64,000 bases of DNA. It comes from Chinchilla lanigera. Lineage: Eukaryota > Chordata > Mammalia > Rodentia > Chinchillidae. The stretch's first letter is position 1. The number at the start of each line of letters is the position of its first letter. The stretch covers positions 9,278,248 to 9,342,247 of the forward strand of contig NW_004955476.1 of the NCBI RefSeq assembly GCF_000276665.1, given 5' to 3'. Below are positions 22,894 to 57,783 of the stretch, piece by piece. The notes below the pieces were generated by a model, which saw nothing but the letters and a program-made list of their open reading frames with translations, was not told the origin of the DNA and did not search any database. The position numbers and the translations under genes are program-made.

Positions 22894-23057
22894 CTGAGAT
22901 CGTGATTTGTTTGTTGTTGTTTTTTGGTTGTTTTTTTCTTTTTGTTTTTGTTTTTGTTTTTTTTTTTCAGTACCAGGAATCAAACTCACAGCCTTGCACT
23001 TGCCAGGCAGGCACTGTGCCGCTGAGCTAAATCCCCAGCCCCTGAGATCCTGATTTG
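22894..23057 (-). mobile_element. ID SINE with target-site duplication
   Basis: The reversed ID element has a T-rich tail with gttt(t) units at 22908-22967. Then come 'cagtaccaggaatcaaactc', 'gccttgcacttgccaggcag' and 'gctgagctaaatccccagcc'. It is flanked by 16-bp TSDs: 'ctgagatcgtgatttg' (22894-22909) and 'ctgagatcctgatttg' (23042-23057), one mismatch. ID elements derive from the BC1/tRNA-Ala lineage and move using L1 machinery. Confidence 0.95.
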
Positions 23058-39512: not shown

Positions 39513-39800
39513 CCCGTGCACACTCACTCCACCCCCTGTGCACACTTACTCCACCCCTCTGTGCACACTCACTCCATCCCCTCTGTGCACGCTTGCTCCA
39601 TCCCCTCTGTGCACACTCACTCCACCCCTTTGTGGGCACTCACTCCACCCCCTGTGCACACTTGCTCCATCCCCTCTGTGCACACTTACTCCACCCCTCT
39701 GTGCACACTCGCTCCATCCCCTCTGTGCACACTCACTCTACCCCTCTAGGCACACTCACTCTACCCCTCTGTGCACACTCACACACCCCTCTGCACATGC
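39513..39800. repeat. Minisatellite, 22-24 bp unit, about 12 copies
   Basis: Successive 'gtgca' anchors lie at 39516, 39538, 39561, 39585, 39609, 39632 (variant), 39654, 39678, 39701, 39725, 39748 (variant) and 39771. The period therefore alternates among 22, 23 and 24 bp. The unit is 'ctgtgcacactcactccacc' with variants cttact, cttgct and ctcgct. Open frames through it, including a 203-codon one (39400-40011), encode only Thr/Pro/Leu/Cys/His repeats and are not credible genes. Confidence 0.95.
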
Positions 39801-56344: not shown

Positions 56345-57057
56345 AGAATAGTTAGAGTTTGATTAGGGAAACAGAAACCTCCTTAAATATCTAAACAGAG
56401 GGAATTTAATTCAGGGAATGGTCTGCACAGATGAAAGAAGACCTGAGAGAGCCAACAAAACCAGAGGAAGATGAGAGAAGGGTAGGGGAAAAGGAAAGAG
56501 GAGAAGGAAAGGAAGCACTTTATTTTTAAATCTTGTTATACTAAAAGTGCATGGTGAAAATTTGAGAGTAATTCTTAGAAGGCTGGAGTAACACACCCAA
56601 ACCAGCAGAAAAGAAAAAGGTAGAATAAGAGGAAAAAACCTACTCAGTGTAAAAGAAGACAGAGAATAAGTAGAAAGTCCTACACCAGTAGAATTTAATA
56701 TAAATATATGAGAGCTGCTCTGCAGAATAACTAGCCTGTAGCTTTCAAGCACCAAGATCATGAAAGTTGGGGTGGGGGGCATATTGTACTGGCCTAAAGA
56801 GATGTTGAGAAATAAATGCAGCATAACCATCTAAACAGAAATCATTTTTCTGTTGAAAATATCATTAGGACAATTGGAGAAAATGTGAACAGGCAAGAGG
56901 ATTAAATGTAATATGGCCATGTAAGTTTGCTGTTCCTGGTGGTGGGATCTCACACATATGGATTCAGCGGGGAAGGGTATCAGATCTCAAATGTTTCTGG
57001 GAGGAAGTTATGATGGTGTCACTACAGCTCTTCTGTAAGTTTAAAAATAAACTTTTT
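56345..57057. other. Unassigned stretch, possibly an old repeat
   Basis: 'gattagggaaacagaaacct' and 'gagggaatttaattcaggga' resemble a mammalian interspersed repeat I cannot name. The minus-strand frame 56411-56830 (139 codons) is Leu/Ser/Phe-rich from purine-rich DNA and shows no domain. Confidence 0.35.
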
Positions 57058-57367
57058 ATGCTAGATGTGATGGCACACACCTGTACTCCCAGCACCTGGG
57101 AGACTGAGGCAGGAGGACTGCTGCAAGTTTGAGGCCAGCCTGGGCTACATACAGTGGCATCTTGATTCATGAACTTAGTTCTTTCCACAACTCTGACTGC
57201 AAATCAAATTGCACAAGAACTGAATTAAATCCAATGGTTAGTTTCAATGTTGACGTTATGGGGAAGTTTGATTCAGTTCTTGTCCAGTTCAGTTTGCAAC
57301 CAGAATCATGGAAAGAATTACATCTGTGAACTGAGGTACCACTGTAGTGAGATTCTGTTTAAAAAAA
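57058..57367 (+). mobile_element. B1 SINE split by a DNA transposon
   Basis: The left half (57058-57151) reads 'ctagatgtgatggcacacac', 'cacctgggagactgaggcag' and 'gaggccagcctgggctaca'. The right half resumes at 57347 with 'gtgagattctgtttaaaaaa'. Joined at a single TA this is the standard B1 junction 'gggctacatagtgagaccctg'. The 193 bp between belong to the nested palindromic element. Confidence 0.85.
57152..57344. mobile_element. Palindromic Tc1/mariner-like MITE inserted at TA
   Basis: This 193-bp element begins 'cagtggcatcttgattcatg' and ends '...ctgaggtaccactg', so the termini are inverted (CAGTGG...CCACTG). It is flanked by TA on both sides (57150-57151 and 57345-57346), the target duplication of the Tc1/mariner superfamily. 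The two arms pair along almost the whole element: by hand count about 56 of the first 78 positions match ungapped, with blocks such as 'ttctttcca' and 'acaagaactgaat' in both. It encodes nothing, so it would have been mobilised in trans. I do not know its family name. Confidence 0.85.
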
Positions 57368-57407
57368 TAAACTTAAATAAATAATAAACATTTCTTAAAA
57401 AGATAAC

Positions 57408-57783
57408 TGTATTAGTCAGATTTTCCCCTTGCTGGAACAAAATACCTGATGCTCAAAACTTACAGAAGAGGTTTATTTTGGCTTCTGATTTCAGAGAGTT
57501 CAGTCCATAGTGGTGTGGCTCCAAGGCAGAAGTAGCATGGAGGAAGGGCCTGGGCAGAGGAAATCTGCTGTCCTCGTGGCAGCCAGGAAGTAGAGAGGGA
57601 AGGGAGAAACCAGGGACAGGAACACACCCTTCCAGTGTGTCACACCCCCATGACCGCCGCTTTGATGCAGTCCAACGCCTAACAGCACTTTCAAAGCAGT
57701 GCCCCCGTGATGCGGCTACCTTTCAAAAGCCCTACCCCTGAGCACAAAACTTTTAAGAGACATTTTAGATCTAAACCACAGCA
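57408..57783 (-). mobile_element. ERVL-MaLR solo LTR, full length
   Basis: 'tgtattagtcagattttccc' to 'atctaaaccacagca'. Landmarks are 'agaagaggtttattttggct', 'agagttcagtccatagtggt', 'cgtggcagccaggaagtaga' and 'cccctgagcacaaaac'. It lies directly left of L1M sequence that also contains the LTR at 58093. Confidence 0.88.

What the first reader, a model, noticed from the sequence alone, without database searches (positions are those of the whole stretch)
57058..57367. Palindromic TA-flanked MITE inserted inside a rodent B1 SINE
The B1 is interrupted exactly at 'gggctaca|TA' and resumes at 'TA|gtgagattctg'. The 193-bp insert has CAGTGG/CCACTG ends and arms that pair over most of its length. The sequence shows directly a TA duplication and long inverted repeats, which established knowledge assigns to Tc1/mariner-type cut-and-paste transposition. 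Because B1 is rodent-restricted, the element must have moved after B1 arose. That means DNA-transposon activity within the rodent lineage, after most mammals had lost it. A horizontally acquired or lineage-specific mariner family is an attractive inference.
Basis: partly seen in the sequence, partly recalled or inferred. Interest (0 to 1): 0.75.

Follow-up and report, generated by a model that had tools for sequence, protein, structure and literature searches.

The report
Tigger-type MITE nested in rodent SINE
A dead 193-base hairpin-shaped mini-transposon of the Tigger kind jumped into an older rodent SINE; it is one of many copies in this genome, and decayed larger relatives with the same kind of end and remains of a transposase gene are still present, so it is a genuine but ordinary fossil of past transposon activity.

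Summary
A 193-bp element (57152-57344) with TA on both sides and CAGTGG/CCACTG ends splits a B1 SINE; the B1 resumes on the right, and a 12-bp duplication brackets the whole. It belongs to a family: two searches of the 2.37-Gb host genome each scored only their best 40 of 2,044 and 2,848 candidates; all 40 were copies each time, 66 distinct places together. In a consensus of 30 copies the arms are identical at 80 of 80 positions after CpG restoration. Relatives with transposase remains (DDE_1) share the end: L074 (about 2.36 kb, both ends) and L078 (one end); L067 keeps only the part behind the first 20 bases. So it is a pogo/Tigger MITE, not a mariner in the narrow sense. It is old: the best scored copy is 92% identical to the CpG-restored consensus. 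Movement after B1 arose is shown. Rodent restriction and horizontal transfer could not be tested, since no other mammal genome was held. A new member of a known kind at most; it may already be in Dfam/Repbase, which I could not search.

The parts
57043..57054 (+). 5' copy of the B1's 12-bp target-site duplication AAAAATAAACTT
   Evidence: exact repeat with 57363-57374; 0 of 3000 AT-rich controls share 12
57058..57149 (+). left part of the B1 SINE
   Evidence: aligns to other B1 copies in the window at up to 82%; nhmmer with a B1 profile (built with this copy included) 2.9e-26
57150..57151 (+). TA target duplication, left
   Evidence: the B1 consensus reads TACATAGTGAG here, so one native TA is expected
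57152..57231 (+). left 80-bp inverted arm of the MITE
   Evidence: 56 of 80 identical to the other arm, 22 transitions and 2 transversions; consensus arms 80 of 80
57152..57344 (.). 193-bp palindromic Tigger-type MITE
   Evidence: 66 distinct places scored in the genome, this one included; shares an end with DDE_1-carrying elements L074 and L078
57232..57264 (.). 33-bp centre outside the 80-bp arms; resembles the partner's sequence behind its end, best when read on the minus strand (tentative)
   Evidence: minus strand: 26/36, 22/32, 28/36 identical in L074, L078, L067, with 3, 1 and 0 of 200 shuffled centres as good; the plus strand also beats shuffles for L074 and L078 (2 and 0 of 200) but not for L067 (42 of 200)
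57265..57344 (-). right 80-bp inverted arm of the MITE
57345..57346 (+). TA target duplication, right
57347..57362 (+). right end of the B1 and A-rich tail
   Evidence: 11 of 14 to the B1 3' end; alignment
57363..57374 (+). 3' copy of the B1's target-site duplication

Best explanation
The insert is a dead, non-autonomous, palindromic MITE of the pogo/Tigger group. Most likely it was made when about 115 bp of one end of a ~2.36-kb Tigger transposon (the end behind the transposase gene) was joined to an inverted copy of its first 80 bp. Tigger transposase made by full-length relatives bound the shared ends, cut the element out and pasted it into TA sites, duplicating TA. One copy landed in the TA of a B1's TACATAGTGAG motif. 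Shown: nested anatomy, TA duplication, many copies, an end shared with DDE_1 elements of the same genome, decay. Inferred: that the transposase of those elements moved it, and how the palindrome was made.
For:: 40 of 40 scored places match (the window copy itself at 100%, the other 39 at 80-86%); 40 of 40 scored places match the consensus at 87-92%. TA on both sides in 17 of 30 copies, on one side in 11, on neither in 2; of the 15 departing ends 11 read CA or TG, one transition away; consensus 193 bp, arms 80/80 after restoring 14 CpG sites; among 50 loci read out of 150 scored DDE_1 places, L074 has the MITE-type end with TA on both sides of its DDE_1 match (left arm 59/80; right end weaker, 45/75), and L078 matches the arm over 80 nt at 81% (E 8e-17); ends within 3 mismatches of 22 occur in 3 of the 50 loci (L062, L074, L078) and in 0 of 50 in each of 5 Markov controls; 24 of 50 loci carry some Tigger-type end by the looser cut-offs, controls 0, 1, 2, 0, 0. 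L078, L067, L076, L052 and L065 align to L074 at 73-78% over their longest pieces (947-2191 columns). DDE_1 over the curated cut-off in open pieces of L074, L052, L067 (3 of 7 pieces given); similarity runs on into the MITE's centre; the end of a Tigger-like Rhodnius MITE (PMC4678618, passage) matches the consensus end at 20 of 22 bases; the window copy's own two ends match it at 17 and 19 of 24, TA included, the best elsewhere in the window being 16.
Against: No complete open transposase frame was seen in a relative with this end; at L074 the DDE_1 match holds four stops and at L078 five. Two N-terminal pieces gave no DNA-binding domain. L062 bears a good end, but its DDE_1 match lies outside that end. 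L067 has no recognisable first 20 bases, and no such end was found at L076, L052 or L065 in the stretches held, so the link rests on L074 and L078, tied to the others by internal similarity. Only 50 of 150 scored DDE_1 places were read. The MITE's centre scores above shuffles in both orientations for L074 and L078 and in neither clearly for L074's right end (34 and 149 of 200) and L062 (57 and 46 of 200), so the way the palindrome was made is tentative. The window MITE is a little more diverged (K 0.12 non-CpG) than its host B1 (0.079 over 81 sites), not the naive expectation for a nested element.
Confidence: 0.93

Rival explanations
1. A Tc1/mariner element in the narrow sense (DD34D/E).
For: TA target and long inverted arms fit Tc1/mariner too.
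Against: Elements sharing its end carry DDE_1, the pogo/Tigger domain. Other DDE_1 loci of this genome have ends of the type CAGTGGACCCTYGAGTTATG (14 of 50 within 3 mismatches, 0 in 5 controls). The catalytic spacing itself was not measured, and no search with a mariner transposase was made.
Confidence: 0.03
2. A horizontally acquired family restricted to this rodent lineage.
For: Nested in a B1; the 30 best matches to the window copy have a lower median non-CpG divergence (0.077, a selected set) than 48 B1 copies (0.148).
Against: Not recent: best scored copy 92% to the consensus, relatives with DDE_1 73-78% to L074, no complete open transposase seen with this end. No other species could be searched, so transfer is untested.
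Confidence: 0.2
3. A DNA-transposon copy spread by L1 retrotransposition (a 'retro-DNA').
For: Such copies are described in primates (PMC11195612, listing and start of abstract only).
Against: The insert has a 2-bp TA duplication and no A-tail of its own, and 17 of 30 copies have TA on both sides; the long duplication belongs to the B1 around it.
Confidence: 0.01
4. A conserved RNA hairpin (microRNA-like) gene that happens to sit in a B1.
For: Strong fold.
Against: Arm differences are 22 transitions to 2 transversions without wobble bias, as in neutral decay; no Rfam match at gathering thresholds in the window; a many-copy family.
Confidence: 0.02

Closest known systems
Tigger group of pogo transposons (mammals and other animals)
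   Same: TA target, CAGTGG-type ends, DDE_1 remains in relatives, length of L074 ~2.36 kb within the range given for Eutheria (1605-2962 bp; PMC9219625 passage), broken copies
   Different: the MITE's arms are 80 bp and perfect in the consensus, against 8-27 bp quoted there for intact eutherian Tiggers; exact subfamily not identified
Tigger-like MITE_109 of Rhodnius prolixus (PMC4678618, one passage seen)
   Same: 20 of 22 terminal bases of the consensus, TA target, a non-autonomous element
   Different: 300-647 bp long, insect host; only the end sequence was seen
MADE1, a mariner MITE of primates (recalled; start of the abstract of PMC1784062 seen)
   Same: short palindromic MITE in a mammal
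   Different: mariner group, about 80 bp (recalled)

Membership tests
MITE (generic) | short, non-coding, inverted ends, target duplication, many copies of uniform length | tested here: met
   193-bp consensus; 30 of 30 fetched copies 187-194 bp; 66 places scored
pogo/Tigger | TA target duplication | tested here: met
   17 of 30 both sides, 11 one side, 2 neither
pogo/Tigger | larger relatives with the same ends carry a DDE_1 (PF03184) transposase | tested here: met
   L074 (both ends) and L078 (one end); both are DDE_1 places; DDE_1 in an open piece of L074, none in two pieces of L078
pogo/Tigger | DDxD catalytic triad | not tested
   spacing not read in the broken pieces
pogo/Tigger | CENP-B/HTH DNA-binding N-terminus | tested here: inconclusive
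   two N-terminal pieces (L074, L052) gave no Pfam family
Tc1/mariner sensu stricto | DD34D or DD34E transposase in relatives with the same ends | tested here: inconclusive
   relatives with these ends carry DDE_1; the triad was not read and no mariner transposase was searched for
rodent-restricted family | absent outside rodents | not testable with these tools
   no other mammal genome held

The most novel reading that the evidence does not exclude
The family and its 2.36-kb Tigger entered this rodent lineage by horizontal transfer after B1 arose, separately from the other resident Tiggers with ACCCTYGAGTTATG-type ends, and the palindromic MITE then outnumbered its source: a rodent-specific DNA-transposon wave with a traceable origin.
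Probability: 0.2. Interest if true: 0.5.

Novelty: new member of a known kind. Interest (0 to 1): 0.3.

Why it matters
The nested anatomy is a clean case of DNA-transposon movement after B1 SINEs existed. With decayed larger relatives in hand, the making of a palindromic MITE from one transposon end can be studied. If the family proves rodent-restricted, it would add a lineage-specific Tigger wave to the few known in mammals. Otherwise it is ordinary repeat annotation.

Tried and rejected
Exact-pattern scans for the end in viral contigs and prokaryote genomes, and a distant BLAST of the element in phages: 0 matches, as expected for a mammalian repeat. A scan for other TA-flanked inverted ends in the window counted two pairs and one after a low-complexity filter (57023/57475), no more than two filtered Markov controls (1 and 2): taken as chance; at its cut-off that scan does not find the MITE's own, decayed ends. 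Pfam on ten long window ORFs: none. Text searches on the subject (B1 searches) showed one matching end, that of Rhodnius, among the papers listed; one search listed 40 of 125 papers and the others were capped too, so no claim of absence in print is made. Dfam/Repbase could not be searched. PDB search with one transposase piece: none.

Full report
Observation. The window shows a 193-bp insert at 57152-57344 with TA on each side and CAGTGG/CCACTG ends. The two halves are inverted copies: arms of 80 bp, TA included, at 73%, a local score of 48 against at most 29 in 1000 random window positions, and a fold stronger than all 200 shuffles as DNA and as RNA. Without TA the 80-bp arms agree at 56 positions and differ by 22 transitions and 2 transversions, which is what decay of a once-identical pair gives; the changes do not favour wobble pairs on either strand (10 vs 12).

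The target. The left flank is B1. After the second TA the B1 3' end follows: 11 of 14 bases, matched or bettered at 10 of 127,972 positions, this place included. A 12-bp exact repeat brackets the B1 with its insert; none of 3000 AT-rich control stretches shares 12 bases with the 5' side. So the B1 was retrotransposed as a unit with its own target duplication, and the insert came later. The consensus of 48 B1 copies (this one and 47 others from the window and 79 held loci; L001 was dropped as a duplicate of the window) reads TACATAGTGAG at the spot, so the TA was native. This B1 lacks the internal duplication that 29 of 47 other copies carry by a crude test.

Copies. The host genome (2,373,719,930 bases, 442 contigs) was searched twice. 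The window copy as query gave 2,044 first-look candidates; 40 places were scored and all matched, the 39 others at 80-86%. The consensus as query gave 2,848 candidates; 40 places were scored and all matched, at 87-92%. The two lists share 14 places, so 66 distinct places are verified, the window copy included; the candidate numbers are not verified copies. Thirty copies were fetched. TA stands on both sides in 17 of 30, on one side in 11, on neither in 2; 11 of the 15 departing ends read CA or TG. With 200 bp of joined flank on each side, one of 30, the window copy, lies inside a B1, and none was seen inside an ID-like SINE. The consensus is 193 bp with 14 inferred CpG sites; after their restoration the arms are 80/80 identical. 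Median divergence from that consensus is 0.149 over all sites and 0.077 outside CpG sites, for the 30 copies most like the window copy, a biased set. With recalled neutral rates of 2.2 to 4.5 x 10^-9 per site per year, 0.077 means very roughly 17-35 million years, and 0.12 (the window copy) 27-55; this is an inference only.

Partner. The DDE_1 family (PF03184) matched 150 scored places of 767 candidates in the genome. Fifty of the 150 were read: the best 30 and the next 20. By the cut-offs, 24 of 50 carry a Tigger-type end, against 0, 1, 2, 0 and 0 of 50 in five Markov controls. Fourteen lie within 3 of 22 mismatches of CAGTGGACCCTYGAGTTATG with TA, and three (L062, L074, L078) within 3 of the MITE's end; controls had none of either. 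L055, L056 and L060 have such ends with TA on both sides of their DDE_1 match. L074 carries the MITE-type end on both sides with TA, spanning about 2.36 kb around its DDE_1 match; its right end is weak (arm 45/75). L078 matches the arm over 80 nt at 81%. L067 matches from base 21 on (27 nt at 89% by BLAST) but has no recognisable first 20 bases. L062 has a good end, but its DDE_1 match lies outside it. L078, L076, L067, L052 and L065 align to L074 at 73-78% over their longest pieces of 947-2191 columns; for L076, L052 and L065 no such end was found in the stretches held. Open pieces of L074, L052 and L067 pass the DDE_1 cut-off; the four other pieces given, two of them from L078, gave nothing.

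How the MITE was made. The similarity between the partner's end and the MITE runs on into the MITE's centre read on the minus strand: 26/36, 22/32 and 28/36 in L074, L078 and L067, with 3, 1 and 0 of 200 shuffled centres as good. The other orientation also beats shuffles for L074 and L078 (2 and 0 of 200), not for L067 (42 of 200). L074's right end and L062 show no clear centre match (34 and 149, 57 and 46 of 200). In L074, L078 and L067 the matching end lies behind the transposase gene, by the strand of the DDE_1 match. The likeliest story is one end of about 115 bp plus an inverted copy of its first 80; the orientation of the centre is tentative.

Reading. The insert is a palindromic MITE of the pogo/Tigger group, moved by cut-and-paste into TA. 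In the passages seen, Tigger is flanked by TA and listed for 9 rodent and 100 eutherian species (PMC9219625), most pogo families have TA duplications and short ends of at most 40 bp (PMC7386202), and a Rhodnius MITE called Tigger-like ends in TACAGTGGTACCTCGGTTTTCGAA (PMC4678618). The consensus end agrees with that at 20 of 22 bases without TA; the window copy's own ends at 17 and 19 of 24 with TA, against at most 16 elsewhere in the window. A beaver assembly table lists 45,279 TcMar-Tigger pieces (PMC5295618, passage), so such elements are common in at least that rodent; the table does not say which are lineage-specific.

Relative age. The MITE family (0.077, selected copies) looks younger than B1 copies (median 0.148 for 48), in line with the nesting, though the sets were chosen differently. 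The window MITE (0.12) is a little more diverged than its host B1 (0.079 over 81 sites); the numbers are small, and a copy's distance to a consensus includes differences present before insertion.

What is not shown. No other mammal genome, no Dfam and no Repbase were at hand. Rodent restriction, horizontal transfer and the empty orthologous site stay untested, and the catalytic triad of the partner was not read. The finding is a genuine and now well-explained fossil MITE, at most a new member of a known kind.

Noticed in passing
window, minus strand, words at 23033, 32769 and 33280: Three tRNA-derived ID-like SINEs (GGGGCTGGGGATTTAGCTCAG...); family name recalled.
   Followed up: partly
window 57409-57780: A stretch just right of the B1 looks like a MaLR-type LTR (from recall only).
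   Followed up: no
window 57023-57042 and 57456-57475: 20-nt inverted repeat, 90%, around the whole B1 with its insert; the TA-flanked scan finds no excess over two controls.
   Followed up: partly
window 39516-39793: Minisatellite with ~23-bp units, 12 copies.
   Followed up: no
L055 and L056 (G000 C79, about 8.7 kb apart): Two Tigger loci with the same score, stops and ends, so probably a local duplication carrying a Tigger.
   Followed up: no
L031-L038: The eight best DDE_1 matches have open frames of 509-619 aa without stops, probably domesticated Tigger-derived genes (inference).
   Followed up: no
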